Of a stretch of 64,000 bases of DNA, positions 3,736 through 58,695 are shown one piece after another. Under the pieces are notes generated by a model. That model was not told the origin of the DNA. It made no database searches and worked only from the letters and a program-made list of their open reading frames with translations. The stretch covers positions 3,596,001 through 3,660,000 of the forward strand of contig JAUTDP010000003.1 in the NCBI GenBank assembly GCA_033439795.1, in the 5' to 3' direction. Position numbers and translations under genes: made by a program. How positions within the stretch are numbered: the stretch's first letter is position 1; each line of letters begins with the position of its first letter. Source of the DNA: Sordaria brevicollis. Its lineage: Eukaryota > Ascomycota > Sordariomycetes > Sordariales > Sordariaceae.

Positions 3736-3744
3736 TACCTCCTT
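3736..3744 (-). other. Polypurine tract of Copia copy 1
   Basis: On the minus strand the nine bases abutting the 3' LTR read AAGGAGGTA. A purine run in this position primes plus-strand synthesis in LTR elements. It independently supports the minus orientation. Confidence 0.6.
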
Positions 3745-14914: not shown

Positions 14915-15078
14915 AGGGCCTAAAGATTGACAGCCAAAACCACGAGTTTAGCATCAACTTCGCGCGTCTACAGCCATCACTAAGTAGGAATTACCAATTC
15001 ATTGAAGCCCTTGGGCTGCCGGGCAAAGCTTTTGGACAATGAAGAAAGGAGGAAAAATCCCGGCTCTCCCCTTTCATC

Positions 15079-15217
15079 ACTCCTCTCATCGCTCCTCTCG
15101 TTACTCTTCTCATCTCTCTTCTTATCTCTCTTCTCATCTCTCTTCTCATCTCTCTTCTCATCTCTCTTCTCATCTCTCTTCTCATCGCTCTTCTCATCGC
15201 TCTTCTCATCGCTCTTT
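15079..15217. repeat. 12-bp CT-rich minisatellite
   Basis: About eleven tandem copies of a 12-bp unit of the form CTCTTCTCATCT, with the 3' copies carrying CATCG. Being a multiple of three, the unit leaves several frames open. On the minus strand it reads as repeated (R/S)DEK tetrapeptides, which I take to be a by-product. The strand is fully pyrimidine-biased and may form a triplex-like structure. Confidence 0.9.
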
Positions 15218-15394
15218 TCTCTTTTCTCCATTTCCCTTCAATATCTCTACGGTCATCCATCATCTTTGGGTACACCGCGAAAACAATGAGTGAACGTTAA
15301 TTGAGCCGCTTATTTACCTCTACCTCTAAAATTATTAAATAATATCTCATTGACCACCGGTAAATTTATAAGACTTCATTAGTCGGCTTGCTCC

Positions 15395-15438
15395 ACACCG
15401 CCGAAATATCCATGGCACACAGTCGATTTATCTGGCTC
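15395..15438 (-). repeat. 44-bp inverted repeat, right arm
   Basis: Reverse complement of 14871-14914 with two substitutions. No matching target-site duplication was evident beside the two arms. Confidence 0.8.
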
Positions 15439-38692: not shown

Positions 38693-39937
38693 ATGTCAGC
38701 ACACGGGAGATCGGCATCGGCCTCACAGGCATCGGTCCCGTCCGCCGGGGACTCTACAACTCCTAAGCACGAAACTACGGCAGCCCTAGGGCACGCGCCA
38801 AAGGATTCCGATGTTGTCCAGAACTATCGGAAACATAGACGGGCCAAGAGCTCTTTCCACGGCGGTATCGCTCCTAACTCTGAGCTGGCCAAATTTTTGC
38901 GGTCCCTATCCGAACCACCTACATTACTGGGAGATTCTGAAGATGCACCCCGCAAAAGACCAAAGCTTTCCGAGATTTTTGAGGACAAAGACCCATTGAA
39001 GGAGGAAGCGCCTCAAGTTGATGACAAGAAGAAGGCCTCGCTCGCCTCACTCGCTGGCTCGGTGATTGACATCCAGTCGCGGAGGCCACCCAAGGAAGAC
39101 ACAGAGAACTGGCAACTAAACGATTTCATGGTCGACACGGCTCACCTTTTGGATTCAGCAGGCAATTTGTTCGACATAGCTCGTCAACATATTGTGACGC
39201 AGCTGGGGTGGCCTGTTTACTCCAAGCCTTTGGACGCGATCAAATCCATGAGAAACGCCTATCCCCTAATGTTCACGAGTAAGATCAAGATGGCGTTTCA
39301 GTGGGATAACGATCGCTGGGCCCCAGTGTCCGGGACGATATGAAGGGCCTGCACCTGATTTTGTGGACTAGTAAGATACCCCAGGGTGGCTCTGGTACAC
39401 CGTACCTATTCTCAAGTTGAAGGCTGCTGACCATTGGTGACAGGCATCGATGATTTTGCCCAAAACTTACATCGTCTCAACGTGGAAAGCAGGTTTGGAC
39501 CTCCCCTCCCCACTCAGGTGAGCGAAACCCCGTTCATGAAAGAAAGTTCATGATAGAAACCTGCTTGACGTAAAACCTGGTTGTTGACATTGGCTCTGGA
39601 CTAGGGTTCGACGGTTTCGCTGCCATTTTTCTGGAATTTCGTGTTAGACATGAAGTTTGTGGAAGAAAACATCGACGGTTTTAAGGACAAACTGGAGAAG
39701 GAATTTGCCAACGAACCTGAGCTCGACTTGAATATTCAAGAGTCTCTAGAGGAACCCGGACTAGATATTGAGGAACCTAGATTAGATATTGAGGAACCCG
39801 GACTAGATATTAAAGAACCCGGACTAAATATTGAGGAACCCGGACTAAATATTAAAGAACCCGGACTAGATATTAAGGAACCCGGACTAAATATTAAAGA
39901 ACCCGGACTAGATATTAGAACCGGTAGCTCTATTTAG
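38693..39937 (+). CDS. Orphan protein with C-terminal heptapeptide repeats
   Basis: My best model has four exons: 38693-39270, 39327-39370, 39444-39517 and 39605-39937 (342 residues). The last two introns (39371-39443 and 39518-39604) have good GTAAG/GTGAG donors and keep the frame. The first (39271-39326) needs a weak GTTCAC donor but reconciles two frames that otherwise end in stops; a sequencing or real frameshift is the alternative. The N-terminus is polar and Ser/Lys-rich with a possible nuclear signal (RKRPK). The middle is more ordered (NWQLNDFMVDTAHLL, PFFWNFVLDMKFVEENIDG). The tail is about eight copies of a heptad of the form EEPGLDI. I recognise no family. The 3' end lies in a RIP-hit tandem duplication, so the stop may be secondary. 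Confidence 0.5.
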
Positions 39938-40181
39938 AATTAAAAAGTAATAATACTATAATAATATATTAATTTCTAATATTTTCTCTAAAGCGAATTT
40001 TAAATGGTCGCCCTCGTAGGTAAATATTATTTTATCCGGCTAGGACGGAATAGGCTATAAATATTTTAATATTAATTAGCTTTGAATTTTAAATTTAGAA
40101 TTGGGTTTTTAAATTTTGGCTTTTCTTTAACTTTTATCAATCCTTTCGCAAGGGGATGCGTTTAGGAAATGCATTATATAC
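39675..40181 (+). repeat. Tandem duplication, unit 1 (507 bp)
   Basis: Aligns without large gaps to 40182-40688. It starts ACGGTTTTAAGGACAAACT. The 5' 70 bases are nearly free of RIP changes, while the 3' 200 bases are heavily changed to A/T compared with unit 2. Confidence 0.9.
39758..39919 (+). repeat. 21-bp coding tandem repeat (heptapeptide)
   Basis: About eight in-frame copies of a 21-bp unit beginning GAACCCGGACTAGATATT, giving EPGL(D/N)I(E/K). Copies differ mainly by C/T and G/A changes. A second, more degraded array with about nine copies lies at 40259-40430 in the duplicated unit. Confidence 0.9.
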
Positions 40182-40688
40182 ACGGTTTTAAGGATAAACT
40201 AAAGAAGGAATTTACTAACGAACTTAAACTCGATTTAAATATTTAAAAATCTTTAAAGGAACCCAAACTAAATATTAAGGAACCTAAATTAAATATTAAA
40301 GAATCTAAACTAAATATTAAAGAACCCGGATTAAATATTAAGGAACTTAAATTAAATATTAAGGAACCCGAACTAAATATTAAAGAACCCGGACTAAATA
40401 TTAAGGAACCCGGACTAGATATTGGAACCGGTAGTTTTATTTAAAATTAGGAAGTAATAATACTATAACGATATATTCATTTTTAATACTTTTTCTAAAG
40501 CGAGTTTTAAACGGTCGCCCTCGTAGGTAAATACTATTTTATCCGGTTAGGACGGAATAGGCTATAAATGTTTTAATATTAATTGGCCTTGAGTTTTAGG
40601 TTTGGAATTCGGTTTTCAGATTCTGGCTTTTCTTTAGCTTTCGTCGGTCCTTTCGCAAGGGGATGCGTTCAGGAAATACATTATACAC
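40182..40688 (+). repeat. Tandem duplication, unit 2 (507 bp)
   Basis: The mirror situation of unit 1. Its 5' half, including the repeat array, is heavily changed (CAA-type codons to TAA, so the frame is closed), while the 3' 130 bases (about 40560-40688) are nearly unchanged. Confidence 0.9.
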
Positions 40689-41380
40689 CGCTTTTGTGTT
40701 TGGCTTTTGATAGGTTGGATGTTGGATATCGGGTATCAGACGGTCATTACGGACATGCACTAGAGTGAATCACAAGTTGGAGGAAACATGGAAGAAAAAA
40801 GGGCATGCGGGACAGGCCTCACATAAAAAAAGGGGTCCTTGGAGACAATCTAATTTGTTATTTAGCTTCTCTCTCGGTGAGGAGAGGGCAAGGGATAAAT
40901 AAACCTGGTTTTCACCCCCGTCTTTCATCTTGAACTTCGTTGATTCTTGCGTATTTTGAAGATGTCTGAATGGACGCCACTAACCACGGCCACAACACCA
41001 TGGATGAGCAGTTCGAATCTTTCAACAGCAATCAGTGTCGACAATAAACCCAACAACTAGTCTTTCGATTACTTGGCCCGTTACTTGCCAAGAGACTCTT
41101 TCTACATTACCATAGGACATATACAATGAAGGTTTATAACATGTCATTGTATTATATGCATATACATAAAACAATTTTCGTTCGTACACCCTCATCCATT
41201 ACATTTATGAAACCTTTTTGTACACAAAACCCAACCCAGCCCTACCAAACCATCCAACCAACACCCATATTAACCATTCTATGTTATGTATATATGCCAA
41301 CAATAAATCATGCAAAAAATCATCAACGTTCTCAATTTCACTTCTCCCAACCTTTTCTTTTCGTCATCACCTAACGGGAC
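40689..41380. other. Spacer between orphan gene and gpi13 (convergent 3' ends)
   Basis: No gene seen. It holds the 3' flanks of the two convergent genes. Confidence 0.5.
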
Positions 41381-44300
41381 TTAATCAGCCCATCCAAAAA
41401 CCTCCGCCACACTCATAACATTGACCCTCACGCCCGCCAACCCGACCAACAAAGCCACCACATCAACCACCAACAACGTGATAGCAGCCGTCATGAACCT
41501 CGGGCTAAACACGCGATAAAGCATCAAGTGTCTCCTCAGGTGACCAGCCCACATCATACTCGCCAACGCCTCGGTGGCATAAAACGCCAGGAAAACGGCC
41601 AACGCTCTGCTCACTGATCCAAGGATGCCGCGCCTTTTGGGACCGGATTTCCAAAGCACCAGCATCGGGAGCATGATAGTGACCAAGATCTGGCCGGCGA
41701 AGGTGTTGAGAACGACCAAGATGGGTGACCAGGGGTACTTAATGCTGTACAGCGGAATAAAGGCGGAGTCCCATTGGATTGAGCTGAGGGTTGCTTGGTG
41801 GCCGGTTTTGAAAAAGGCTGATTGACCCAGGATGGCGAGCATGATGGGGCCGATTGGGTTAGAGCCGATGGGGAGGGAGAGCAAGTCGAGGATTTCGAGG
41901 AGGGACAGGGATTGCCAGAGGGTGAGAGCCAAAGCGCCGGCGCCCATGGGTTTGGAGACCAGGAATAGGGCGACGAAGAAGTTGAGCGGCAGAAGGAGGT
42001 AGCGAGCGCCGTGGGCGTTGCCGTAGCCTAGGACGGTCACTTGGGCAGTTTGTTGAGCACCAGGGATAGCGGCGAGAGGGTCATCCTTAGAAGAAGGGGC
42101 GCGGCGGAGGGCGGTGGTGACGATGGAGATGCAGGGAGGGGCCCAGACGAAGGCGGTGGAGCCGGCAACGAGGGCGAGGCCGAGGATCATTTGTGCGGTG
42201 TAGACGGAGAGCGTCTTCAGAATCTTCTCGGGGAGGGGAGGGAGGGTAGAGAGGGCCTCGGTGGCGGAGTTGGGAAGATAGGCCGACAAGCGGGAAGAGA
42301 TGACGGGGAGCCAGTTGCCGTTGTCAGCGGCGTCGAGGACCCAGTAGACCGCCGAGAAGAAGAGGCCGGCGCGGAAGACTTGGCCGATCCAGGTAGGGGC
42401 GAGACCCTCGTAGGACTTGGAGGGTGTCAGGTAGGCCTTGATGATGGATGGAAGGATCATGACGGCGACGAAGGGGATGAACAGTTGCCAGGGAGCCGAG
42501 GTAGAGGAGGTGGCGCTGGCGTAGTAGGTCGATGTGCAGTACGGCATCTGTTCCTCGCGGCAGAGCTTGGAGAAGGAGGCGAGACGACCGAGCAGAACGA
42601 AGAGGATGGAGTGGTAGATGGCCATGTAGCGGTCGGGCAGCGATTCCATGCGGAAGGCAGAAAGGGCTGTGGCAATGCCAAAGGTGGTCATCACGAAAAG
42701 CTGGATCGAATCCTCCCAGATAGTGTAAGAGTTGGAGGCAAAGCCGATAGACTGGCTGACGGTAAAGACGACGGCCATCCAGCCCCAAAGAGTGTTGGGG
42801 AGGACGTTGAAAAAGGCACGCTCAGCATCGTGGAGAGCAACCAAGACGGTGGCAACACTGGTGAAAGCACCAACGGCCGAACCGCGATACCAATCTCCAT
42901 TACCAGACAGGTACGACTGCAGAAGGCCGCCAAAAAAGCCAGGAACAGCTCCCAGCATGGCGGCACGGAAGAGACGCTTCTCAAGGTAGTGGCCCTCGTC
43001 AGCAGTGATACCCTGCAGCTCGAGGCTCTTCTCAGCATGATCAAGCTCAGAGTCCTCAATCACGAGGGCATCATCGTCTTCGGTACGCTTGTTGATGTAG
43101 ACCAGAAGAGAAATGATACCGGCCGCCATGATACCAATACCAATAATCATGTTCTTGACATCGAACCTGGCCCAGAGGCTCTTGGAGTAGTCCAGAGTCT
43201 CCTTCTGGTACTCAGCATAGGCCTCGAACACAGGCTCCCAGCTATGGCCCTTCTTGACCTTGCCAGTAGGGACCGAAGCCTCAGCCTTCTCCCACAAATC
43301 AGCGGGCGAACCAGTGGTCGTAGCCTGCTCGATTCCGCGAGCAGAGAAGTACGAAGTCTGGTAACGCTTGATGCCAGCAGCGGAAATGCGCTCCGCAGCA
43401 GCCAACTTATCCCAAGCATTGCCGCGAGGACCAACAAAGGCCTCCTCGATCGGGTGACCCAAGTTGTTGTAAGGGATAGGAATACCCATGAGCAGCGCTA
43501 AAGTCGGGACGAGGTCGATCTGGTTGACGGGCCGAGTCTTGGCGGTAGCGGGAGGAGTGACATACTCGGGCTTAGTTCTGCCGAACACGGCCTTGGGAGA
43601 GTACATCCACAGAGCAGCCTCGACCTCATCCTCACTCTCGCCGCCATGGTCGCCCTTGCTGTCCATACCGTGGTCGCCCATGACAATCAACAGGGTGTCG
43701 TCGTCGATGTTGGACGCCAAGTCCTTGATGAAGGTGTTCATCTGCTGCAGCTTCTTGGCCATTTCGGGGTGGTCAGGTCCATAGCGGTGGCCGGCGTGGT
43801 CAACACCGAGAAGGTGGGCAATAGTAACGTCCCACTCGCCCTTGCGCTTCATCAAGGGGAAGATGTGCTCAATAACACCATTGTCAACCGTGTGCAAATC
43901 CCAAACGTTGAAACTGTCGTAGGCCCGGCTCAGGTTGGCCTGGAAGTAACCAGGGAAGAGCGACTCCCAAGTGTCATCTCCGAGGTGCACGATGCGCTTG
44001 CCGGCGTCCCGGAGCTGCATAAGCAAGTTATCCTCCTCAATCGCGGTACCGGCGAAACTGCTGCCAACATCCACAAAGGTGGGCAAGGTGCCGGTAGTCA
44101 GGCCCTTGAGCCTCTGGAGTGTAGAAGTCGGGGGATCGGCGATGAACGGCCTCAGAACGGCGTTGTTGGGTGAGGCCAGGGCGGTATCGTACATGAACGG
44201 GAACGCATTGTGGAAGGGGGCGTCGTCCTTGACGGGAACGGTAAAGTCGTAGCGCAACGCATCGATGACAACAACCACGGCCCGCTCAAAGGTCTTGGGG

Positions 44301-44782
44301 TGCCAGCAGCCTCCGTCCACGGTTCCCTTGCTCTTCCAGTTCGGCAGAATGTCCACAGCTCCGTTGATGCTGGTGTTGAGCGTCGGCGGCGCATCGCAGA
44401 CGGACTTGTCGTCCAGCATCAGACGAGTCAGGAGGAAACCGCTGGTGAAGTAGGCGATGCCGACGACGTGGATCAGCAGCATCCAGACCCAGAAACCAGC
44501 GGTCCATAGCCAGCGGCTCTCGAAGCTGGCCTTGCGCTTAGCCTCAAGGGCTGCACGCTGCTTGTCGGCCAGACTGACGCGGTCTTCTTGTTGCTTCTGC
44601 TCCTTCTTCTTGGCCGTGGCTTCACCGCCTGCCGCTTTCGTTACTCCAGCTGCTTGTGCCTTTGCGGCATCTTGGGCTTCCTTTGCGCGCTTCGCGGCGG
44701 CGAACTTGGCAGCGATTGCCTGGTATTCCGTCTGCTGCGACTGCGCCGCCGGGGGCTTTTTCGATGTCGTTTTGGGCGGCAT
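41381..44782 (-). CDS. gpi13: GPI ethanolamine phosphate transferase 3 (Gpi13/PIG-O)
   Basis: Single exon, 1133 residues, close to the family's usual 1,000-1,100. A Lys/Ala/Gln-rich cytosolic head (1-90) precedes membrane segment 1 (about 92-118). The lumenal alkaline-phosphatase-like domain holds AVVVVIDALRYDF with Asp174, TTGTLPTF with Thr229/230, GVDHAGH (Asp328, His329) and MGDHGMDSKGDHGGES (Asp370, His371), the metal and catalytic sites of the Gpi13/PIG-N/PIG-O class. From about residue 550 to the end the protein is a series of hydrophobic helices. In the ER it adds phosphoethanolamine to the third mannose of the GPI precursor, the link used to attach proteins. All key motifs are intact, so it should be functional. 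Its promoter is limited on the upstream side by a transposon at 45112. Confidence 0.95.
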   Translation of the reverse strand: MPPKTTSKKPPAAQSQQTEYQAIAAKFAAAKRAKEAQDAAKAQAAGVTKAAGGEATAKKKEQKQQEDRVSLADKQRAALEAKRKASFESRWLWTAGFWVWMLLIHVVGIAYFTSGFLLTRLMLDDKSVCDAPPTLNTSINGAVDILPNWKSKGTVDGGCWHPKTFERAVVVVIDALRYDFTVPVKDDAPFHNAFPFMYDTALASPNNAVLRPFIADPPTSTLQRLKGLTTGTLPTFVDVGSSFAGTAIEEDNLLMQLRDAGKRIVHLGDDTWESLFPGYFQANLSRAYDSFNVWDLHTVDNGVIEHIFPLMKRKGEWDVTIAHLLGVDHAGHRYGPDHPEMAKKLQQMNTFIKDLASNIDDDTLLIVMGDHGMDSKGDHGGESEDEVEAALWMYSPKAVFGRTKPEYVTPPATAKTRPVNQIDLVPTLALLMGIPIPYNNLGHPIEEAFVGPRGNAWDKLAAAERISAAGIKRYQTSYFSARGIEQATTTGSPADLWEKAEASVPTGKVKKGHSWEPVFEAYAEYQKETLDYSKSLWARFDVKNMIIGIGIMAAGIISLLVYINKRTEDDDALVIEDSELDHAEKSLELQGITADEGHYLEKRLFRAAMLGAVPGFFGGLLQSYLSGNGDWYRGSAVGAFTSVATVLVALHDAERAFFNVLPNTLWGWMAVVFTVSQSIGFASNSYTIWEDSIQLFVMTTFGIATALSAFRMESLPDRYMAIYHSILFVLLGRLASFSKLCREEQMPYCTSTYYASATSSTSAPWQLFIPFVAVMILPSIIKAYLTPSKSYEGLAPTWIGQVFRAGLFFSAVYWVLDAADNGNWLPVISSRLSAYLPNSATEALSTLPPLPEKILKTLSVYTAQMILGLALVAGSTAFVWAPPCISIVTTALRRAPSSKDDPLAAIPGAQQTAQVTVLGYGNAHGARYLLLPLNFFVALFLVSKPMGAGALALTLWQSLSLLEILDLLSLPIGSNPIGPIMLAILGQSAFFKTGHQATLSSIQWDSAFIPLYSIKYPWSPILVVLNTFAGQILVTIMLPMLVLWKSGPKRRGILGSVSRALAVFLAFYATEALASMMWAGHLRRHLMLYRVFSPRFMTAAITLLVVDVVALLVGLAGVRVNVMSVAEVFGWAD

Positions 44783-45111
44783 CGTGGCGGCGCCCGTAAA
44801 AAGAGGAAGGGAGGGAGAACGAGGAGAGCCCGAGGGCGTCGCGCGCGGCGGGGAACGGAGCTAGAGATCGACTCGGAAGCCCGGAGACGTGAAAAGCTTG
44901 AGAGACCAGCACCAGAGTTGTAGTCAGTGAGGTTCTTGTCCGGTTCGAAGAGGGGAGCAAAGGGGGGTTATAACCGGAACACAAAAAGAAGTAGTTCCGT
45001 GTCCCGACGTTAGAAAGGCCGCGACAGAAGAGTCGGTGTCGGTGTCCCCGTCTCGGTATCTCGCTGCCGACTGTGTTGGGGACGGTGGGGTTGTTTTGGG
45101 GAGATGTCAAT
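44783..45111. promoter_or_regulatory. gpi13 promoter/leader, truncated by transposon insertion
   Basis: Only 329 bp separate the gpi13 start codon from the transposon's target duplication. The segment is of normal base composition, with no repeat or RNA gene. Any upstream control further away is displaced by the 13.6-kb insertion. Confidence 0.55.
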
Positions 45112-45120
45112 GGATCAAGG
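45112..45120. repeat. 9-bp target-site duplication, left
   Basis: GGATCAAGG, repeated exactly at 58687-58695, each copy directly abutting the inverted repeats. Confidence 0.88.
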
Positions 45121-45190
45121 GGGGAGCGGCATCCAGGTCCGCGCAAAGTTCATTTTAGGCAAGTGCTGAGCCACCGCACAGACACAATAG
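45121..45190 (+). repeat. Left terminal inverted repeat of the Mutator-like element
   Basis: 70 bp. It matches the reverse complement of 58607-58686 across GGGG, a 10-base less conserved patch with mostly C/T differences, AGGTCCGCGCAAAGTTCATT and onward to GCACAGAC. It lacks 10 bases present in the right copy, a deletion bounded by short GAGC repeats. Confidence 0.88.
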
Positions 45191-45749
45191 ACCTCCGCAA
45201 ATACTTTTTCACAAGCGCCAAAAATCAATCGCAAACGCCTACTAATAATTTCAATACTTTTATATCTTTTTCCGCTGCGTATCCGCGGCCCGTACTCTTC
45301 GCGTACGTATCGTATTCGTCCGAACGTATTGCGTATCGTTTATATAATTATTTATACAATATCCCAAGAATTATAAACTTTAATACAATTCAGCTTTATA
45401 AATAATATAACCTTACGAACCTTAATACTACGAAAATGAATATATATAATTGCGTATTATTATTAATATACTATAAATTAATATATAAATATTATAAATA
45501 CTTTTGCTATTCCTATTATTCTTCCTAATAAACTATTACTTCTTCCAATATTATTATTAGTATTATTATTAAAATTTAATCCTCTTTTTTTACGAAATTT
45601 ATAACACTATATAGGATTTTACTATATTTAACCTTAATAAAGTAATTTATTAATACCTATTATAATATAATTAGAGCTTTCGTTCTTACTTCCTATTATA
45701 GAATTAGAACCTTTAATAAAAAAGCGAAAATAGGAAAAGCGGCGTAAAT

Positions 45750-48340
45750 CCTTTTCGTTAAAACTTCGTCCTTTATTACTCCTTTCCTTATTACTACCTC
45801 CTTCTTCGCCACTATTTTTTTCCTCGTTATTACTTCCTTCTTCGCTACTACCTCTTTCTTTATTACTATTTCCTCCTTTTTTATTATCGGATAATAGGGA
45901 TAATAATAGTAATAATAATAATAATAGGGATAGGAATAAGCCCGAAGTTGTATTATAGGGTAATTATCGTAAATAATATAATTATAACCTCGTTAAAGGA
46001 AAATAAATTATTTTAGGTATATTTAATAACGGTTTTTATATTTTAAAACGGATAATTACTATCTGCGAACGTTATTTTATAGTAAGCGATCTATTCGAAG
46101 TAATTAAAATTAATTTTAAATATAATTAGCGTTAAGTTTTATATTTCTAGAGTAAAAGGGATAGGTTAAAAAGGCCTAAATTTAGTAGGTAAAAACGTTA
46201 CCGTTATTATTTATATTAAAATAAATTAAATAATAATAGTAAAACCGGTAAAACTTCGAAGCCTTTATATATATTTAGTAAATGCTTTGTAAATTTTTAT
46301 TTAGAAGAAACTTTAGAAGAAATTTATAGAATTACTATTATTAATAATTATATTTATAAAATATTAGAATATAATTAAATTATATTATTAATAACTATTT
46401 AAAAATATATTATTTTTTTACTAGAAATTGGGCACTCTATTATTATAATAGAATATATAATTCTTAGGCGAGAGAACGCTCCTATTAAACGACTTCGATT
46501 GGAAAATTATAGTAATCGATAATTTAATATTTAGAAGATTAGGAATTTGAAACGGCGGTTAGGTATAAAAATAAAATTAATACGAAAAGTTATAAAAAAA
46601 TATAACCCTATTAATAAAATTCTTAAAGCCGAGAAGCTCTTCGCCGAATTATTAGAGAAGATTATTAATAAGGAATAAAAGTGGAAAAACCGTAAGGTTA
46701 TAATAGTAGGAGATAATTTTAATTTAATAAAGAAAAAAAAAAAGGAATTAGTTAGTAGATTTATATTTACGAAGTAATTTAATATAAATTTACTATATAA
46801 ATAAAGAAGTATTATTATTATAAATATAATATATAAAATTAATCGTTATAGTTTTTACCTATTTATAATTATAATACGAGATAAATACGGTTTATAATTC
46901 CTTTCTACGTTCTTTTATACTTCTATATTTAATATTAAAATTATTAAAATATATTTACGTATTTTAATTAAATAGTATAGTAGTTTTAATAATTAGGCGT
47001 TAAAATATATAATAATAGACGATTTAACGGCCGAATAGTTAGCTATACGCAATACATTTACTAAGGATAGAATTATTATTATTTAATATTTATTATATAG
47101 AAAGTACTCTTAGAATTTATTATATAGAAATATTTAAGATAATAAATTATATTTAAAGGCTATAAATATTATACTCTATTATAAATTAACCGAAGAAAAA
47201 TATCTTATATTTATTAATAAAATTATTTCTTACGCTACTCTTTATTAAATAAATTATATTCGGAAGTATTAGAGAATAGAAATTAAATATTAAGTATATT
47301 AATTTAAATACAATATCCCTCTATTTCTTTAAATTAATATTACGAATATAATTAAATCCTGGCATAGTTACTTCAAAATTAAGAACGCTATAAAAAAGGA
47401 TATAGTAAGAGCTTATAATTTAAAAGGCAATTTTATTATTATTATTAATAAACTAGAAAATTATAACCGTTTCGTTAATAAATAGAGAATCCGTAGTAAG
47501 TATTACTGTAAACTTCTTATATATAAATTTCTTAATTATAATTTTGAGAAATTGCCAATTTGTATATAAATAATGATTTTTCGTTAATTATACTTTATTT
47601 AAAAACGGTTGAATATATTTAAAGATATTTAAAAAGGTTATACAATAATATTTAATTAGGAAGTAATATATTAACGGGATAACCGATGGTAAGTTTTTTC
47701 TACTATTTTATTGCGGATAAAATATTTATTAATATATATATATTTAATAATTATAATATTAATAGGGTAAATAAGGTTGAATTTCTAGAGTATAAACCTT
47801 AAGATAATAATTATTTCGAACTAGATTATATATTATTGAGAAACTTTAATAATAATTAAATAGAAGTAAATAATTAATTTATTAGTATACTTTAATATAA
47901 GTGTAGATAGTTTTTAATATAGTAGTTTCTATATATTTATATTTGGTATTATTACTTTATATTTAATTTATTATTATTAATTCACTTTATTTAATTAATT
48001 AATTTATAAGTATAATATAGTTTTAAGGTATACGAATAAATTAAAAAGCTTTTTGAAAATACTTTTAATTCTATTATTAATATACTATTAAAATAAAAAT
48101 TATAAGCTCGAAAAATTAATAAACGGTTAAATAAGAATATTTACCGCATTAGGGATGCGGTTATATCTCGTAGAGGAATAGCGGAGGAGATAAATTATTA
48201 ATCTTAAATTTTTATTAATAAAGTGAAAGCGAGTATAGATATTATATTTATTATTAATTTAAATAATTTAATATAATAATAGGAAGAGGTTTTAAAGGAA
48301 GAAGGTTAGGTAGAATATATAATTTAATAATCCTTTAATA
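45750..48340 (+). pseudogene. Decayed ORF of the Mutator-like element, probable transposase
   Basis: Plus-strand translation gives coding-like stretches punctuated by stop codons that RIP would make. A Pro/Ser-rich then Asp/Asn-rich head lies near 45770-45950, then GIFNNGFYILKRIITICER and KTGKTSKPLYIFSKCFVNFYLEETLEEIY in one frame around 46020-46330. A Cys followed by a distant His-like position hints at a zinc-binding N-terminus of Mutator transposases, but this is weak. Limits are approximate. Between 48340 and 49134 I see only AT-rich DNA. Confidence 0.4.
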
Positions 48341-49134
48341 TTTTATAATATATAATTTAATATTTTATTCGAATTAAAATTTAATATTTTGGTCGTTTTT
48401 CTAAGGCTACCCCCTTTAATATTTAACCAAAATATAGTTTTATATAATGCCCTATAAAAATTTCCTTATAGCGTTATTAAAAAGTACTAAGTAATTACCC
48501 CGCGGCGGGGTAATAATATATAATAAAGAATAAGGGTTAATAATTTATAAAAATTTTAATTTATAAAAAAAATTATTTTCAATATAAAAATAAACCGTCT
48601 TTTAAAAATATTATAAATAATTATTATATAAACCTATATATTAAATATTAGACTTTACATCAATATATATAGTAGAATATTGGGAAAGGAATTTATTTTC
48701 CCTAATATTTATTAATACCAAACTATATAGTAATATTTGCAATTTTTCGGCTACGTTTCCCGTATAAGTAATAAAATAAGAAATATAAATTCGAATTCAC
48801 TTCGAATTCCTATATAGGATGATATTTCGAATAGTATAGTAAATAAATTAATAATTATTCGTAAATCCTTCTACTTAAAATTTGAATTTTGAAAGTGACG
48901 TTATAAGTAAATAGAGGGATTTCCCCCACCTTCGTCGCGTTACTTATCCTTCCTCGCGTTCTCCTTCTCCTCCTCCTTCTTTCTCCTTTTTTTTCCTCCT
49001 CTAGCGTATAATATTACTATTATTGTATATATACTTCTATTTTACTTTATTTATATAGTTATATTAATTATTTTATATATTTAGAAAGCTTTTTTTTTGC
49101 GTTGCAATTATATAAACGTATATATTTATTATTA

Positions 49135-49139
49135 TTTTT
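49135..49139. repeat. Target-site duplication of nested Copia, left
   Basis: TTTTT directly left of the LTR, matching 57012-57016. Low complexity makes this weaker than a mixed-sequence duplication. Confidence 0.6.
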
Positions 49140-49839
49140 TGTTGAAGAGGGAGCCTTATAACCTTCGCAGGCTAATTCGGTATAACGAAAGATATCGAAG
49201 GTAAAGGCTTGAGGATAAATAACGAGGGCAATTTGGTTATTATCCTTAGGATGGAAAAAGAGGGCGGTATTGTAGGAAACCGAAGGCATGAGTGGTACGG
49301 TTGTGTAGAGGAGGATGAGACGGTCACAATGGTATGCTTTGTGTGTGTGTAGGACTTGAATTGGTAAAGATATTGATGAGTGTCTAAGGGTGAAGAAAAA
49401 TCCTTCTTTCCTTCGAGGAAGCCCCATTCTTATACTTTTCAGGAATCCGATTTGACAGCCGGATCCGTCGAATCTCGACGATTCCGAAAACGTTATATTC
49501 GTTTCCGTACGACTGCAAACGGCCGAGTTACGAGCCGTTGAAAGGAAAAGGTCCGTTGACGTCGTTTTCCTTTGTTCCCGGATTTCCTTTGTCTACCCGG
49601 TTCTTTCAACCTTTGAACCTCGGCCTTTCTGGGCCTCGGCTTCTAGACTTGGGCCACTCTGGGCCACCCTAGGCCTTTTTGGGCCTCTGGACCTCGGTAG
49701 AGTAAAGAAGAGTTCGATAAGCTACTTTAAGGTTAGTTACCTTTGTATAACCTATATATATAATATATAGTATATAGTATAATCCCGTAAATCCGTATAA
49801 ATATAATATTATTATATAATATATATATTAAGACCAATA
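49140..49839 (-). repeat. 3' LTR of nested Copia
   Basis: 700 bp. It begins TG and ends ATA (CA changed by RIP). The middle retains normal GC content with repeated GGGCC(T/A)C motifs near 49630-49700. Confidence 0.92.
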
Positions 49840-49846
49840 CTCCCCC
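49840..49846 (-). other. Polypurine tract of nested Copia
   Basis: GGGGGAG on the minus strand immediately before the 3' LTR. Confidence 0.7.
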
Positions 49847-50265
49847 GTAAACTAGTTACGGTAGTAATTAGGTTATAAATATATATTATTATATAATATA
49901 TATATTAAGAGAAAAAATTAAACTCTTATAAGGTAAAAATTAAATATTATTTTTTAATATTTATAAAACCTTTATTATTATTTATATATATATTTCTTAT
50001 ATATATAATATATAGGGTAAAAATTTAAATATTATAAATATTTATAAAAACCCGTTTATTATTATAAATATTAATTTTTATATAATTATAGGAAAATCTT
50101 ATTTATAAGATAAAAAACCTATAGATAATAATATAATATTATTTAATTATTTTATTATTTATAATATATTAAAATATTTTATAATAAAAATTTTTCAATA
50201 CCTATTTTATTCCGCCATTTTGATAAATATTTATTATCCATTAGCTTAGTTAAATTATCTGCTAA

Positions 50266-51728
50266 TTATTCTTTAGTAGGGATATATATTATTTTTGCTT
50301 TATTATTATTTATAGCTTCCCTTATAAAATGATACCTTATATCGATATACTTAGACCGTTTATGAAATTCTGGATTATTAGCCAGTTTTAAAGCAGCTAT
50401 ATTATCTTCGAATATAGGGGGTATAATTTCTAGAATATTTATTATATTAATTAATTTATTAATATATTTTAAAGAAGAATTTAAATATAATAATTCTTTA
50501 ATAGCTTCCGTTAAAGCCATATATTCAGCTTCACAGGTAGATAAGGCTACCGTTTTTTGAAGCCCACTATTCCAAGAAATTATATTATTTCCCAGGGTAA
50601 ATATATATCCTATTGTAGATCTTCTAGAATCTAAACAATTAGCGTAATCGCTATTATAATAACTCTTTAATATAAGATTATTATTATTTTTATTTTTATT
50701 TTTATAGGTCATTCCTAAATTTGGGTATTTATTTAAATAACTAAATATTTGATCAACGGCTTTAAAATGGTCTTTACTAGGGTTACTAGCATATTTAGTA
50801 TAATATTATATTGGGAAGGTTAAATCTGGCCTTGATTTTAAAGCTAGGTATAATAAGGAACCTATATATTGTTGATATAATTTTATTTCTTCTTTAGAAG
50901 CTTAACCTTTATTTTTAATTAATTTTATTTTAGTTAAAGGTATTAATACTGGATTAATATCCGTTTTATTATATTTTTCTAGCATTTTTCTAGTATATTT
51001 ATATTGGTACATATAGATATAATTATATCTATTATTATTATTATAATTAATAATATTTTTATTATTATTATAATTAATATTATTATTATTATAATTATTA
51101 TCCTTTTTATTATTAATAGTATTATTATTAATAATATTATTAATATTTCTTTTAATAATAATTTCTATTCCTAAAAATGTATTAACTTCCCCAAGGTATT
51201 GAAGTTTAATACTTTTAATTGCTTTTTCTACTATATTATCTATAATAGATTTTTCTGGGCCTATTATTATAAGGTTATTAACGTGACAAAGTATAATAAT
51301 ATTTAATTTATTATTAATAAATGCACCGTCATCGAAAGGAAAAATTTCGAATTCTAGGGCCTTTAAAACCTTAATTAAATATTTATACTAGAGCCTAGGG
51401 CTTTGTTTTAAACCATATAAGGCCTTCTTTAATTTATAGACCTTATTTTCTGGTAAATTATTATAATAACCAGTCGGGGGTATAACGTATATATCTTCAT
51501 CGATATAAGCGTGAACGAATGCATTTTTTACATCGTATTGTAATAATTCCCAATTATTAGTTATTCCTATAATAAAGAATATTCTATAGGTTTCTGGCCG
51601 GCAAACGGTAGAAAAGGTTTCTAGAAAATCCAGACCTTCTACTTGGTTAAAACCTTGCACTACCCATCGACTTTTAAATTTATATTCTTCTTTTAAAGAA
51701 TTATTATTTATAATATTATTATTATTAA

Positions 51729-51762
<34 letters not shown>

Positions 51763-51786
51763 ATAATTATTTTCTTTATTATTAGA

Positions 51787-51834
<48 letters not shown>

Positions 51835-54800
51835 ATAATTATTTTCTTTATTATTAGAATTATTATTATTATTCTGGTTATTATTATTAATAGGTTTTAA
51901 TTTATAAACCCATCGACCGCCTAAGGCTTTTCTATTCTTAGGGAGATCTACTAATTCCTAGGTATTTTGTCTTTCCAATTCTTCTACTTCTATTTTCATA
52001 GATTTTATCCACTCTTGGCTATAAGGACTAGAAATAGCCTATTTATATGTAGAAGGTTCTTTAATATTATTAAGATTTTTAATAATATTTAATACAGAGT
52101 TTTCTATATAATTTATCGATTTAAATTGTTGATAATATTCTCTGTTTTTCCTTGGTAATAATACGCGTATATTATTCGATAAATTATTATTATTTGGAAA
52201 GTGATTACTAGAATTAATAATTCTAAGGGATTTTCGTAGACTTTGGTTATTAATATTATAATTATGGTTATTTATGATATTATTATTTTTATTATTTTTA
52301 TTATTTATATTATTATTTTTATTATTTTTAATAATAAAATCTTCGAATTTAGACTCAGATTCTTCTAAATTATTATTATAATTATTATTATAATTATTAT
52401 TATTATTTAAAAATAAATCTTCTGAATTTTTAATAATATTATTTTCAATATTATTTAAGGTGGATTTATATAAGGTATTATTATTATTATCAGTATAATA
52501 AATACCTTCTAATATTTTTAAATCTCGAACCCAGAAAGCCTTTCTTTTCTGGAAATTATATATTTTATAATTATTATTATTATTTTCCCCGAAGCCTACT
52601 AATATGGCCCTTTCGGCTTGGGGTCCTAATTTCGAGATATTAGGTCCTTTTAATTTATAAAAAACGGTTGAACCGAATATTCTAATATTATCAATATTAG
52701 GTTTTTCATTATATTTTAATTCGTAAGGGGTTTTATACCCTATAGAACTATGGGGGTTCTATTATATAAATATACAGCCGTTTCTAAGGCTTCTCCCATA
52801 AATATAACGGTAATTTAGCGTTTATTAATAAGAATCTAACCTTTTCTAATAAGGTTCTATTAATCCTTTCTAGGAAACCGTTTTGTTCTTTAGTATAAGG
52901 AGCATTTAATTGATGAATAATTCCTTTATTATTAAATAAGGTTTTTATTCTTTTATTAGTATATTCCGTTCCATTATCTGATTGGAATATTTTTATTCTT
53001 TTATTATTAATATTTTCATTTTTATTAATAAAATTATTAATAGATTCGAATACTTCTTCTTTATCCTTTAATAAAGATATTTCTAAATAACGAGTAGCCT
53101 TATCTATAAAGGTTATAAAATATTTATAATTATTATACGTTTTATTAGCAAATGGACCACATAGATCACTACTAATTTTATCCATATAATTATTATATTT
53201 TATATTAATAATATTTTTATTAATATTTTTATTCTTTTTATTCGTTATTTTAGCTTGGTAGCAAATAGGGCAGTCTTTTTCTAAATTATTATTATATTTA
53301 TAAGAAGAAATCGTATTTTTAAGAATATTACGAATATTATCATTACCGCAGTGAGCAAACCGCTGATGTAGTATATTTAAATCTATCGATTTATTATTAT
53401 TAATATTAATATTATTTTATTAATATTATTTTTTTATTTTTTTATTAATATTATTTTTTTATTTTTATTAATATTATTATTATATTTTTATTAATATTCT
53501 TATTATTATTCGTATTTTTAATATTCTTTAATTTCTTCTTATTTCTTATTATATTAATACTTATAGTATTAGTATCACCAGTATATAACCGTTTTTTAGG
53601 TTTTAAAATTTCAACTGGTAAAAAATATAAGCCATTTATTTGCTCGCCAATACTTATAGTATTTAAACCGTTTCTTAAATAAATATTATATTTATTAATT
53701 ATATTATAATAATTACCTTCTAAGGTAGAATTACTTATAATATTTATACCTAGTTCTGGCATATAATAACAGTTTTTTAGAAGCATTCTTTTATTAGAAT
53801 CTTTAAAATATATAAATACATTTCCAATACCCAATATAGACCGTTTAGTAGCCTTTCCCCAAGAAACTACTTTATTCGTTTCTTTAAAGGTATAGAAAAA
53901 ATCCTTATTAAAAATAACGTGGACTACTGATCCAGAATCGATAATAAAATTATTTTTATAATTATTTTTATTATTTTTATTAAACGAAGCAGAATAGTAT
54001 AATTTAGGAAGGTTATTAAATAACCGTTTTATTCCCAGTCCTAAAATTTTATTATAGTTAGCTTCTGGTTTAATATAAGGATTTTCAATATTATTATTAA
54101 TAATATTTTTAATATTATTATTTTTAATAATATTTTTAATATTATTATTTTTAATAATATTGAGGGTATTAGGGGTAGTTATATTTACTATTTTAATATC
54201 TTCGAAGACTGTATTGTTTTCCTCATCGGAATCGAAAACTTCAGAAATTCTGGAAGAATTATTCGAATTATTATTATTCGAATTATTATTAGATTTTTCT
54301 AATATAGAAAAATCTATATAATCTTCTTCTTCTTCCAATAATTCTAAGGGAGTATTCTTAATAAGAATATTGATATTTTCTTCCCTTTCTTTCTTTCCTG
54401 GATTTTCTGGCCTTGTTTTCCAGTGCTTTGGAGCCTTTTCTGGGTGTAAAAAAGCACATTCTATATGCTTATGGCTAGGCTTTTTATAGTAAGAATAGTA
54501 AATAGCCTTTTTAACTACTTTCTAGGGTTTCTTTCCTTTATAAGGTTTAGAATTTTGGAAAGGTATTTTATTAGAATTTTTATTAGAATTTTTAATAAAT
54601 TTATTATTAAAATTCTTATTAAAATTCTTTTTAGAATTATTCTTATTATTATTAATAAAAAGAATATTATTCTAATTTGAATCCTTTCTTTTTGATTTAT
54701 CTATAATAAATGAAGAAATAGTTTTAAGGGTATAGGCCTTAGAATCCTTTCTAAGGTCCTAGGTTATAGAAGAAACGAAGCTTTTGTAATTATCCCCTAA

Positions 54801-55222
54801 ATTGAATAAAATCCAGGAAATTACTACTTAATTAGGTAATTCTATTTCCTTAGATTTTAATTTATTTATAATAGCCTTAATTTTATTAAGGTAGGATTTT
54901 ATATTTTTAAAGGAATTAGGAATAGTTTTAAAAAATTCCTTTATAATAAGGAATTCGGAAGTAAATCCTTAAGGACTATATAAATCCTTTAAAATATTCC
55001 AGGCTTTAAAAGCTGAAGTTTCGTATTGAATATAAAGAAGGGGGCCGTCTTCTACAATTAATTGTAATTTGGCCAACGCCTCTTGTCGTCTTTAAGGCCT
55101 TCTTTTTGGAATTTATCCCAATTTTCTATAAGAGTAAAATAAGCTTTAGCTCTTATAGCCCAGAGGGTATAATTCTAAGTTCCCTTTAATTTAGGGAGCT
55201 TGGTTTCAGAACCACTAGCCAT
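50266..55222 (-). pseudogene. Copia gag-pol polyprotein (copy 2), partly open but interrupted
   Basis: The start ATG is at 55222 (MASGSETKLPKLKGT, then an early stop). Gag includes a zinc knuckle near 54440-54480 whose first two Cys positions read Tyr. The protease core DSGSVVHV is near 53930. Gag-pre-integrase follows (YYMPELGINIISNSTL). Integrase at 52784-53185 has Asp (SSDLCGPF), Asp (FQSDNGTEY) and Glu (EQNGFLERINR). RT at 51388-51660 has LLQYDVKNAFVHAYIDEDIYV and LYGLKQSPR. RNase H at 50266-50712 has STCEAEYMALTEA and NNPEFHKRSKYIDIRYH. Coding sequence is very AT-rich with long Asn (AAT) runs. Stops between the open blocks show it is inactive. Confidence 0.88.
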
Positions 55223-56313
55223 TTTTATATAATAATATATATATAAATATATTATATATATTTTTATTATATATTTATATTATATATTTAAAGAATAAAA
55301 TTCTTTATATATATAAATATAATTTATGGCTCGGATATATATATATTATAATTATATAATATATATTTATTATTTTCAATAATGAAAATAATAATAAAAA
55401 TTCTTCGTAAAGAATTTTAATTATATATATATTTATATATATAATTTATATAATTATTTTCAATAATTATATATATCGATATTATAATCGATAATTATTT
55501 TCTTTTAATGAAAATAATTTTAGAAAATTCTTAAAGAATTTCTTAACCTTTTATAATATAAATATTTAATAAATATTTAAATATATAAACTGGTTTTTTC
55601 TTTTTCTTATTTATATAAGAAAAATATATATATATATTTAATAAATATATATAACCCAACGTTTTTTTTTTCACAATGAAAAAATCCTTATTTATTAAAA
55701 TAAATAAGTATAGAAAAATAAAATTATTTTTCAAGGGGTTTTATTATATTTCTATATAGAAAATTTCTATATAAGGCTATATAACCTTCTAGTTGGGTGG
55801 AAGTAATTCAAGAATTAATTCCTATTATCTCCAGCCGTTGGGAAAGGAATAAAGGGATTTGAAGAGCCCTCTAACTAGCTCGGAATTTAATTCCGTTCCT
55901 TGGAATAGATATTTTAAATATCTTTCCTTTCTCTCTCTCTCTCTTTCGTCAAAAAGAATTCCAGGTAGAGGAATTTCTCGAAATAGAATTGGAAAATATT
56001 TCAAGGGAGTTTTCTTCGTTATTAATAGGAATTTCGAGGAAATATTCTTCCCTAAAGAAAGAATTATAATAAATATCTTCAAAAATCGGAAACGATCTTT
56101 ATTAAATAGATTTAAACCAATGGTTAATTCTATTTTAATAATAAAAATTTAATATTTATATTCCTTAATATCGAGAGGGAATTCCTTTTCGAAAAGGTAA
56201 TGGAGGACCTTCTTTCCATTATTAATAAACGGGGGAAATTAAAAATAATAATATTCTTAATAAATCGGCTCGTCGTTAGGAAGGTTTATCGAAATAAACC
56301 CGGGCTTATAATT

Positions 56314-57011
56314 TATTAAAGAGGGAGTTTATAACTTTCGTAAATTAATTCGGTATAACGAAAGATATTAAGGCAAAGGCTTGAAGATAAATAACGAGGG
56401 CAATTTGGTTATTATCCTTAGGATAGAAAAAGAGGGCGGTATTGTAAGAAACCGAAGGTATGAGTGGTACGGTTGTGTAGAGGAGGATGAGACGGTTACA
56501 ATAGTATGCTTTGTGTGTGTGTAGGACTTGAATTGGTAAAGATATTGATGAGTGTCTAAGGGTGAAGAAAAATCCTTCTTTCCTTCGAAGAAGCCCTATT
56601 TTTATACTTTTCAAGAATCCGATTTGATAGCCGGATCCGTTGAATCTCGACGATTCCGAAAACGTTATATTCGTTTCCGTACGACTGTAAACGGCCGAGT
56701 TACGAGCCGTTGAAAGGAAAAGGTCCGTTGACGTCGTTTTCCTTTGTTTTCGGATTTCCTTTGTCTACCCGGTTCTTTCAACCTTTAAACTTCGGCCTTT
56801 CTGGGCCTCGGCTTCTGGACCTGGGCCACTCTGGGCCACCCTGGGCCTTTCTAGGCCTCTAGACCTCGGTAGAGTAAAGAAGAGCTCGATAAGCCACTTT
56901 AAGGTTAGCTACCCTCGTATAACCTATATATATAATATATAGTATATAGTATAATCCCGTAAATCCGTATAAATATAATATTATTATATAATATATATAT
57001 TAAGACTAACA
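56314..57011 (-). repeat. 5' LTR of nested Copia
   Basis: 698 bp, ending CA; its opposite end reads TA instead of TG, again a transition. Minus-strand frames inside both LTRs are by-products of the repeat rather than genes. Confidence 0.92.
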
Positions 57012-57016
57012 TTTTT
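57012..57016. repeat. Target-site duplication of nested Copia, right
   Basis: TTTTT directly right of the LTR. Confidence 0.6.
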
Positions 57017-57088
57017 ATTATTTTTTTACGATTGTAATTTAATTTTGATTTTAATTTTAAATTAATATCGCGATTATTATTTAGTAAT

Positions 57089-58094
57089 ATACCTTCTACT
57101 ACCCGTAGTGGTAATAGCGCTTCTAAGCGTAAGAACGATGACAACGTCGGCGGCGGCGGTTCTTCTACTAAAAAACCTGTAAGTTTACCCTTCCTTCTTC
57201 GATATATATATTATTAATATTATTTAACCTTTACATATTAATAAAGGTTTTATAAAGAACTATCGCAATACCTTCGGGTAAATAACCCGGTATTAAATAG
57301 AAGATCCTTTACGCTCCCTATATTATCCGCGCCGGCGTAGCCGGCGGTTATAAATATTATAATTAAATAAATAAAAGTATAGCTTACGCCGAATACGCTA
57401 AGAATAACTATTATACTAATTACCGTCCTATAAATATTATTAAAGAAATTTCTATTCAACTTTTAATTATTTATTAATTTATATATTTTTTAAATATTAG
57501 AATATATATATAACTATCTCCTCGAGTAGTAGGAAAAGAATTCGGCTATAAAAATTATAATTAAACGTACTATTATATATATATAGGAGTACGCCGCCCT
57601 ACTTCGTATTATTTTAACCGGAAAATAAATCGAAAAGAAAGTTATTACCTCGCCTATAAATATAAGTATAATATTTATTTAATTAAAGGATAATATCGCC
57701 GCGTATATAGCGCTATTTCTTATTAAGAAAGAGGAGAAACCTAAATTTAAAAAGGATAAAGAAATAGCCTTAAAGGTTAAATAAATCGAAATTTTAAAGA
57801 AGATTACCGAAGGTATTATTATTATTAATATTAATATTAATAATATTAATAATAACCTATATAGTATTTTCGAAATTATTATAAATTATATCCTTTACTC
57901 TTAAGTATTAAAACTTCGGCTAATTTTTATAGTTATAGTATATTATTATTTATTATAGTCTCTTTAATAAGCGCCCCCCTATTAATAGTACGGCCCCGGC
58001 CAAGAAGGATAAAAGCAAGGAGCCTAAGGCTCCTAATAATAATAATAGTAGTAAGGGGGATAAGGGTAATAAAGGTAGTAAAATTATTAAATAG
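57089..58094 (+). pseudogene. Decayed second gene (cargo-like) in the Mutator-like element
   Basis: A legible 30-codon first exon (57089-57178) reads PSTTRSGNSASKRKNDD then a Gly run and SSTKKP. Its presumed ATG now reads ATA, and it ends exactly at GTAAGT. Downstream plus-strand frames continue with RIP-type stops (YKELSQYLRVNNPVLN near 57255-57300). The last block (58003-58094) is Lys-rich (APAKKDKSKEPKAP, SSKGDKGNKGSK) and ends at TAG. Composition suggests a small nuclear or nucleic-acid-binding protein; I recognise no family. It might instead be the transposase C-terminus, but the start-like exon argues for a separate gene. Confidence 0.45.
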
Positions 58095-58606
58095 GATTAA
58101 TATAATTTTTTTTTATATTTTTATTAATTACTATAAAATATAATCTTTTTTTATATTTCTTTTTTTTATATTATTATCTTTTTCGTAAAGGAATAACGCT
58201 ATAACTTCGGTAAAACCTCTCTAAGAAATATTATTATAAAGAGAAATAAAAGCTCTATTTAATAAATTACTTTTTAATAATAAAACTTTTTTATTATTAT
58301 TTTAATTTTTAAAATACTTTTTTAATATACGAAACCAAATTTTAATATTATATTTCGTAATACTTAATATAAAGTCTTTCAACTTTTTAATTTAAAATTT
58401 AAAATTTTAAAGTAAAATTTATTTAATTATCTATACCCTATTAATAAAATTTTAAATATTCTACTTTATATTTACTATTTGTATATTAATACCGATATTA
58501 TCGTTAATATACCGGCCACGGTTGCGTATATCGGCGCCGCGCTTGCGCTTATCTGTCGCTACGCAAGCGCGGTACGCACGGGACTCCCAAATCCCGAGTG
58601 ATATTA

Positions 58607-58686
58607 CTGTTGCGTCTGTGCGGTGGCTCGTAGTAGCTCAACACTTGCCTAAAATGAACTTTGCGCGGACCTAAATAACGACCCCC
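58607..58686 (-). repeat. Right terminal inverted repeat of the Mutator-like element
   Basis: 80 bp. It is better preserved in length than the left copy and remains GC-normal although the interior beside it is AT-rich. Confidence 0.88.
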
Positions 58687-58695
58687 GGATCAAGG
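58687..58695. repeat. 9-bp target-site duplication, right
   Basis: GGATCAAGG, identical to 45112-45120. Nine bases is the typical duplication size of Mutator-like elements. Confidence 0.88.

What the first reader, a model, noticed from the sequence alone, without database searches (positions are those of the whole stretch)
45112..58695. A 13.6-kb Mutator-like transposon with matching ends and a 9-bp duplication, defined through RIP decay
The AT-rich block looks like shapeless RIP debris, but its two edges are 70/80-bp inverted repeats beginning GGGG. Directly outside each is the same nine bases, GGATCAAGG. End sequence, end length and duplication size agree with the Mutator/Hop superfamily. 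The whole block is therefore one insertion event plus one nested insertion.
Basis: partly seen in the sequence, partly recalled or inferred. Interest (0 to 1): 0.8.

Follow-up and report, generated by a model that had tools for sequence, protein, structure and literature searches.

The report
Decayed Mutator-like transposon with nested retroelement
An AT-rich block in a Neurospora-like fungus is a 5.7-kb DNA transposon, probably Mutator-like, with a 7.9-kb retroelement inserted inside it, both scarred by the fungus's repeat-killing mutations, which is a well-resolved but ordinary case of nested transposons.

Summary
Imperfect inverted ends (70 and 80 bp) at 45121 and 58686 are flanked by an exact 9-bp repeat, GGATCAAGG. 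The 13.57-kb block is two things: a DNA transposon of about 5.69 kb and a Ty1/copia-like element of 7,872 bp (49140-57011) inside it, with its own 5-bp duplication. Three other full-length copies in the same genome share the 5.7-kb core. All three lack the copia at that site and carry other insertions, so they span 28-45 kb. Seven short copies have the same ends (six complete, 313-324 bp; one split by a later insertion). Over 11 copies, target duplications are exact in 7 (9 bp in three, 8 bp in four), have one mismatch in 3, and are only 6 bp in 1. Changes between full copies are almost all transitions, as RIP gives. The core keeps one long, heavily stopped reading frame in the four full copies. 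Its only Pfam matches are to two MULE-type RNase H models, all below cut-off. 'Mutator-like' is therefore probable, not proven; the Hop clade was not tested. Ordinary biology, unusually well resolved.

The parts
45112..45120 (.). Left target-site duplication GGATCAAGG
   Evidence: read directly
58687..58695 (.). Right target-site duplication GGATCAAGG
   Evidence: read directly
45121..45190 (+). Left terminal inverted repeat, 70 bp (GGGGAGCGGCATCC...)
   Evidence: pairwise alignment; homologous ends genome-wide
58607..58686 (-). Right terminal inverted repeat, 80 bp (GGGGGTCGTTAT... on - strand), with a 10-bp insertion relative to the left one
   Evidence: homologous ends genome-wide
45121..49139 (+). 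DNA transposon core, first piece (4,019 bp, including one copy of the copia TTTTT duplication)
   Evidence: shared with copies on C27, C3 and C4 at about 86-90% identity
57012..58686 (+). DNA transposon core, second piece (1,675 bp, including the other TTTTT copy)
   Evidence: shared with copies on C27, C3 and C4 at about 86-90% identity
45935..48845 (+). Read-through frame of a probable MULE-type transposase, 970 codons with 68 stops; followed in the three other long copies in pieces, with small frameshifts
   Evidence: weak PF21056/PF10551 matches; 0 of 10 control frames match anything
49135..49139 (.). Copia target-site duplication TTTTT, left
   Evidence: paralogous uninterrupted sites
57012..57016 (.). 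Copia target-site duplication TTTTT, right
49140..49839 (-). Copia LTR (starts TG on the + strand), about 700 bp
   Evidence: 94% direct repeat
56314..57011 (-). Copia LTR (ends CA on the + strand), about 698 bp
   Evidence: 40 transitions and 0 transversions in 698 aligned positions
53451..54338 (-). Copia ORF fragment with Pol_BBD domain (PF22936, E 9.2e-14)
52784..53185 (-). Copia ORF fragment with integrase core (PF00665, E 2.8e-11)
50266..50712 (-). Copia ORF fragment, RNase H-like by eye (STCEAEYMAL); no Pfam match at E 0.01
   Evidence: motif recalled

Best explanation
The block is a cut-and-paste DNA transposon of about 5.69 kb, most likely a Mutator-like element (MULE). It inserted about 330 bp upstream of the start codon of the GPI13-like gene and made a 9-bp duplication of its target. 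A Ty1/copia-like LTR retrotransposon of 7,872 bp integrated into it (5-bp duplication TTTTT). Both carry RIP-type mutations. Shown: the ends, the duplications, the shared core in four copies, the copia-free site in the three other copies, the short derivatives with the same ends, and the transition-only substitution pattern. Inferred: that the broken frame encoded a DDE transposase of the MULE type which cut at the inverted ends, that it also moved the short copies in trans, and that nesting happened at this locus rather than before the element arrived here.
For: Ends and 9-bp duplication. Three other full copies: C27 45.4 kb, C3 34.9 kb, C4 28.3 kb; core lengths by piece sum 5,665-5,701 bp in 4 of 4. 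Duplications over 11 copies: exact in 7 (9 bp: window, C4:2282650, C24:3455739; 8 bp: C12:4551850, C1:5883602, C22:675202, C4:1150896), one mismatch in 3 (C27, C3, split C1 copy), 6 bp only in 1 (C12:723231). Nested copia: LTR pair, TTTTT duplication, uninterrupted site in 3 of 3 paralogs. RIP: over about 1.1 kb at one end, 108-139 transitions and 0-2 transversions per pair of full copies; over 690 bp at the other, 75-86 and 0-2. Transposase: a frame followed in all four copies and in sister copies; of 7 read-through pieces with stops read as W, the only Pfam families listed are PF21056 (3 of 7, best 0.0022) and PF10551 (1 of 7, 0.049); 0 of 10 control frames (5 other frames of the same stretch, 5 frames of the second core piece) match anything. 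Known fungal MULEs: Hop 9-bp and VdMULE1 8-bp duplications, 99- and 86-bp ends (passages of PMC2725143 and PMC3441728).
Against: No transposase match passes a curated cut-off. PF10551 over the whole genome (E<=10) lists 128 places, 123 over cut-off, but none in the four copies, although those places also hold stops; PF21056 likewise misses them (4 places). With stops read as X, 1 of 4 proteins matched weakly (PF21056, E 0.079) and 0 of 4 sister or distant copies matched anything. Profile-profile comparison with three PF10551-positive copies of the same genome is not significant (probability 0.3%, E 0.17-0.18), though it aligns at the first-motif region. The fold prediction is useless (mean pLDDT 36). 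Two protein-database searches, about 8,000 candidates scored in each, found nothing at E<=1. The duplication length is mixed 8/9, which hAT or Zisupton-like elements could also give.
Confidence: 0.78

Rival explanations
1. The outer element is a TIR DNA transposon of another superfamily with about 8-bp duplications (hAT, Zisupton/KDZ or similar); the nested structure and RIP history are as described.
For: 8-bp duplications in 4 of the 7 copies with exact duplications; MULE models only match below cut-off. Zisupton makes 8-bp duplications (passage of PMC12730594).
Against: Exact 9-bp duplications in 3 of those 7; long TIRs; no hAT, KDZ or other transposase family was listed at E<=10 in the Pfam scans of the frame (HMMER's filters drop most matches above about 0.1), whereas two MULE-type models were.
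Confidence: 0.17
2. The composite of 13.6 kb (MULE plus copia) moved as one unit, so the 9-bp duplication records a jump of the composite.
For: The outer ends and 9-bp duplication are intact around the whole block.
Against: 0 of 3 other full copies carry the copia at that site; the copia interior is less RIP-marked than the core (substrate index 0.71 against 0.15 and 0.27), which suggests it arrived later, though the two start from different sequence.
Confidence: 0.04
3. The matching ends and the nine bases are coincidental edges of unrelated RIP debris.
For: The AT-rich interior produces many inverted repeats (1,285 pairs).
Against: The ends are not AT-rich, recur genome-wide, and bound the same 5.7-kb core in 4 of 4 long copies.
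Confidence: 0.01

Closest known systems
Hop of Fusarium oxysporum (fungal MULE)
   Same: Long TIRs (99 bp against 70/80 bp) and 9-bp target duplications; fungal host (passage of PMC2725143).
   Different: Hop is 3,299 bp with an 836-aa transposase; this core is about 5.7 kb, its two ends differ by 10 bp in length, and its transposase does not reach the PF10551 cut-off. Sequence similarity to Hop was not tested.
VdMULE1-3 of Verticillium dahliae
   Same: TIRs of 73-86 bp, an 8-bp duplication in VdMULE1 (passages of PMC3441728).
   Different: 3.4-3.6 kb, complete MULE domain, no clear RIP bias reported.
Mutyl of Yarrowia lipolytica
   Same: A long MULE (7,413 bp), 9-10-bp duplications (passage of PMC2725143).
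   Different: 22-bp TIRs and two ORFs; a second ORF was not established here.
The 128 PF10551 places elsewhere in this genome
   Same: Same genome, also holding stops.
   Different: None lies inside the four copies; this family looks like a separate lineage.
Ty1/copia LTR retrotransposons
   Same: Nested element: LTRs of about 700 bp, TG...CA ends, 5-bp duplication, Pol_BBD and integrase in the order of copia.
   Different: Reverse transcriptase and RNase H were not identified by a domain match.

Membership tests
Mutator-like elements (MULE superfamily) | Long terminal inverted repeats | tested here: met
   70/80-bp imperfect TIRs; same ends in 4 long copies and in the short copies
Mutator-like elements (MULE superfamily) | Target duplication of about 8-11 bp, mostly 9 (range recalled; 8, 9 and 9-10 bp in the fungal examples) | tested here: met
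   Exact 9 bp in 3, exact 8 bp in 4, one mismatch in 3, 6 bp in 1, of 11 copies
Mutator-like elements (MULE superfamily) | Transposase with MULE domain (PF10551) over the curated cut-off | tested here: inconclusive
   Cut-off not reached: best 14.5 bits against 27.6, in a sister copy on C24; none in the four copies genome-wide. The frame in the window has 68 stops in 970 codons. The related PF21056 reaches E 0.0022, 18.4 bits against 27.2, in the C4 copy.
Mutator-like elements (MULE superfamily) | DDE catalytic triad in an RNase H fold | tested here: inconclusive
   Stretches resembling MULE motifs seen by eye only (recalled); AlphaFold2 model at pLDDT 36 carries no information
Mutator-like elements (MULE superfamily) | SWIM-type zinc finger (many members; recalled) | tested here: inconclusive
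   No zinc-finger family was listed in the Pfam scans; the stretch is RIP-damaged
Hop clade | Phylogenetic placement with the Hop transposase | not tested
   No Hop sequence was compared
Ty1/copia retrotransposon (nested element) | Paired LTRs and a short (5-bp) target duplication | tested here: met
   LTRs and TTTTT
Ty1/copia retrotransposon (nested element) | Integrase upstream of RT/RNase H | tested here: inconclusive
   Pol_BBD, then integrase by Pfam; the downstream RNase H-like ORF only by eye; RT not identified
RIP-mutated repeat | Transition-only divergence and shifted dinucleotide indices | tested here: met

The most novel reading that the evidence does not exclude
The family is a MULE lineage lying outside the PF10551 model, with its own miniature derivatives (six of 313-324 bp, a seventh split by a later insertion) that keep near-normal base composition while the full-length copies were destroyed by RIP. 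The same ends on long (RIP-hit) and short (RIP-spared) copies would make it a natural length test of RIP within one transposon family.
Probability: 0.35. Interest if true: 0.45.

Novelty: new member of a known kind. Interest (0 to 1): 0.28.

Why it matters
It shows that a block that looks like shapeless AT-rich debris can be resolved into two insertion events using end sequence, paralogous uninterrupted sites and transition counts. The family gives matched long and short copies in one genome, which bears on how repeat length decides whether RIP acts. That short elements escape RIP is already in print (PMC9970103, passages), so this is an illustration, not a discovery.

Tried and rejected
Giant transposons: end pairs 28-45 kb apart first suggested giant cargo-carrying elements; comparison showed a common 5.7-kb core interrupted by later insertions. 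Of the five insertions in the three other long copies, three are bounded by direct repeats of 256-461 bp, one (first on C3) by inverted repeats, and one is 0.6 kb. Rejected.

Strict 9-bp duplications: not general in the family; four copies have exact 8-bp ones.

PF10551 and PF21056 searched over the whole genome: no match in the four copies. Protein-database searches with two alignments: nothing at E<=1; the database does hold fungal proteins, since the GPI13 neighbour finds an 88% identical N. crassa protein. Search of solved structures: 0 matches at E<=10. Structure prediction: pLDDT 36, not used for a fold search. Profile-profile comparison with PF10551-positive copies: not significant.

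Codon-position test: transversions against the distant copy on C8 fall 111, 100, 149 on positions 1, 2, 3 (hand-worked chi-square about 11, 2 d.f.), as expected for a coding frame; against the near sister on C24 the counts are 13, 5, 14 and against C26 11, 4, 5, too few to tell and the last not enriched at position 3.

RIP-spared edges: transition sites per 80 columns do not clearly fall towards the ends, although G+C is higher there. Not claimed.

Literature: the listings showed no title or abstract start describing this family, and a 14-base string of the TIR is in 0 papers. Seen only as search-term passages: PMC2725143, PMC3441728, PMC13412767, PMC4592977, PMC12730594, PMC9970103. Chalvet et al. 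2003 (Hop) was not seen.
Full report
What is there. The window lies in a 53.08-Mb genome of 27 contigs, at C21:3596001-3660000. The neighbouring gene (41381-44782, - strand) encodes a GPI13-like protein 88% identical to one of Neurospora crassa, with closer unnamed matches at 94% and 90%, so the host is a Neurospora-like fungus. The block 45121-58686 has GC 0.239 against 0.51 in its flanks and RIP-shifted dinucleotide indices.

The ends. GGATCAAGG lies directly outside both edges. The inverted repeats are 70 bp (left) and 80 bp (right), the right one with 10 extra bases; tips differ (GGGGAGCG, GGGGGTCG), and the best stretch is 38 of 40 identical.

The family. A search with the right end gives 21 places in the genome and with the left 300 bp 29 places (the tool calls such counts lower bounds). 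Apart from six places that match only the subterminal part, these resolve into four long copies and seven short ones. The long copies are the window (13.57 kb), C27:1985126-2030495 (45.4 kb), C3:2434064-2468929 (34.9 kb) and C4:2282650-2310934 (28.3 kb). All four share one core, 5,665-5,701 bp by piece sum, at about 83-90% identity. The three others are interrupted by five insertions in all; three of these are bounded by direct repeats of 256-461 bp, one by inverted repeats, one is 0.6 kb. Six short copies are 313-324 bp and complete; the seventh (297 bp held) is split, its other end lying 13 kb away on C1. The six subterminal places match at 69-73%; five of them, read out, have related ends of the form GGGAGT(G/A)T(G/A)CATCCA(A/G)GTCCGCG, and the sixth (L047) was printed from its other side and shows no end. 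Protein-level relatives outside the four copies match at 34-77%, the longer ones at 41-77%.

Target duplications. Of 11 copies, 7 are exact: 9 bp in the window, C4:2282650 and C24:3455739; 8 bp in C12:4551850, C1:5883602, C22:675202 and C4:1150896. Three have one mismatch: C27 (8 of 9, and one changed base at the element's tip), C3 (7 of 8) and the split C1 copy (7 of 8). One, C12:723231, shows only 6 bp. The G and C runs at the tips leave the exact boundary open by a base in some copies. So the family makes 8- or 9-bp duplications.

The nested element. LTRs at 49140-49839 and 56314-57011 are 94% identical; the element starts TG and ends CA on the + strand and is flanked by TTTTT on both sides. 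On the - strand, open fragments carry Pol_BBD (E 9.2e-14) and integrase (E 2.8e-11), followed by an RNase H-like fragment recognised only by eye: the copia order as far as it can be read. In all three other long copies the sequence runs through this site, the two sides overlapping by the length of the short duplication plus one base. The core of the outer element is therefore about 5.69 kb, not 13.6 kb.

Timing. The two LTRs differ by 40 transitions and 0 transversions in 698 positions. Between the four long copies there are 108-139 transitions and 0-2 transversions per pair over the first ~1.1 kb, and 75-86 and 0-2 over the last 690 bp. Nearly all divergence is RIP-type, so copies were close to identical when RIP acted. 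The core (substrate index 0.15 and 0.27) is more RIP-marked than the copia interior (0.71), in line with the copia arriving later; this is only suggestive, since the two start from different sequence. The short copies have GC 0.42-0.47, substrate index 1.00-1.50 and TpA/ApT 0.72-1.12. Between groups of short copies transitions and transversions stand at about 1:1 to 3:1; within the group C22, C1:5030871, C4:1150896 there are 4-7 transitions and no transversions, so light RIP of that group is not excluded.

The transposase. On the + strand from 45935 a 970-codon stretch with 68 stops can be followed in the other three long copies, in pieces and with small frameshifts, and in sister copies. Pfam scans with stops read as X gave one weak match among 4 proteins (PF21056, E 0.079) and none among 4 sister or distant copies. 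With stops read as W, 3 of 7 pieces match PF21056 (ZSWIM1-3 RNase H-like; E 0.0022, 0.031, 0.088) and 1 of 7 PF10551 (E 0.049); no other family is listed at E<=10, though HMMER's filters drop most matches above 0.1. Ten control frames (5 other frames of the same stretch, 5 of the second core piece) match nothing. All four PF21056 places in the genome overlap PF10551 places, so the two models see the same domain. Against: neither family's genome-wide search lists the four copies, while PF10551 lists 128 places, 123 of them over cut-off and all with at least one stop; profile-profile comparison is not significant; database searches and fold prediction gave nothing. Codon-position counts support a coding frame against the distant C8 copy only. 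By eye, stretches such as INITYKINRY and NTTNIIKS resemble MULE motifs; that is recall, not a test.

How it most likely worked. A DDE transposase bound the long inverted ends, cut the element out and joined it at staggered cuts 8 or 9 bp apart, filled in as the flanking duplication; the short copies, lacking the gene, were moved in trans. A copia element integrated in the copy studied here. RIP inactivated all four long copies. The nesting and the RIP pattern are shown by sequence; the chemistry and the movement in trans are inferred from the superfamily.

Comparison. Fungal MULEs with similar ends and duplications are known: Hop (3,299 bp, 99-bp TIRs, 9 bp) and VdMULE1 (3,613 bp, 86-bp TIRs, 8 bp) (passages of PMC2725143 and PMC3441728). 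The first of these also says that Hop relatives were reported in N. crassa. I describe this as a probable new MULE family, with the domain test inconclusive. Escape of short elements from RIP is already described (PMC9970103, passages).

Verdict. Interest is modest.

Noticed in passing
window 14870-15439: A second miniature element: 570 bp, about 45-bp inverted ends (CGAGCCGGATAAATCG...), flanked by an 8-bp repeat GGCTTTCG; four other relatives matching its whole length at 71-94% (C26, C1, C2, C6).
   Followed up: partly
window 3546-9162: Another AT-rich RIP-marked block bounded by 186-bp direct repeats (3546-3731 and 8977-9162, 90% identical), probably an LTR element.
   Followed up: partly
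window 39675-40695: Two copies of a 515-bp stretch at 85% identity, each holding eight 21-bp tandem units (AGGAACCCGGACTAGATATTA and a variant).
   Followed up: no
G000 C1:5017798-5031167 (L054, L063): A short copy of this family split by about 13 kb, with a 12-bp duplication GTTCATTTTAGG at the break and a TAATGAATGAATG stretch at one edge, as a LINE insertion might leave. Most of the insert was not read.
   Followed up: partly
window 44782-45112: The transposon sits about 330 bp upstream of the start codon of the GPI13-like gene, so it may displace that gene's promoter.
   Followed up: no
whole genome G000: 128 PF10551 (MULE) places, all with at least one stop and nearly all with several, suggest that other MULE lineages were abundant before RIP.
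   Followed up: no
G000 C27:1985126-2030495, C3:2434064-2468929, C4:2282650-2310934: All three other full copies carry large later insertions (about 40, 29 and 23 kb in total), so 4 of 4 long copies became landing sites for other elements.
   Followed up: partly
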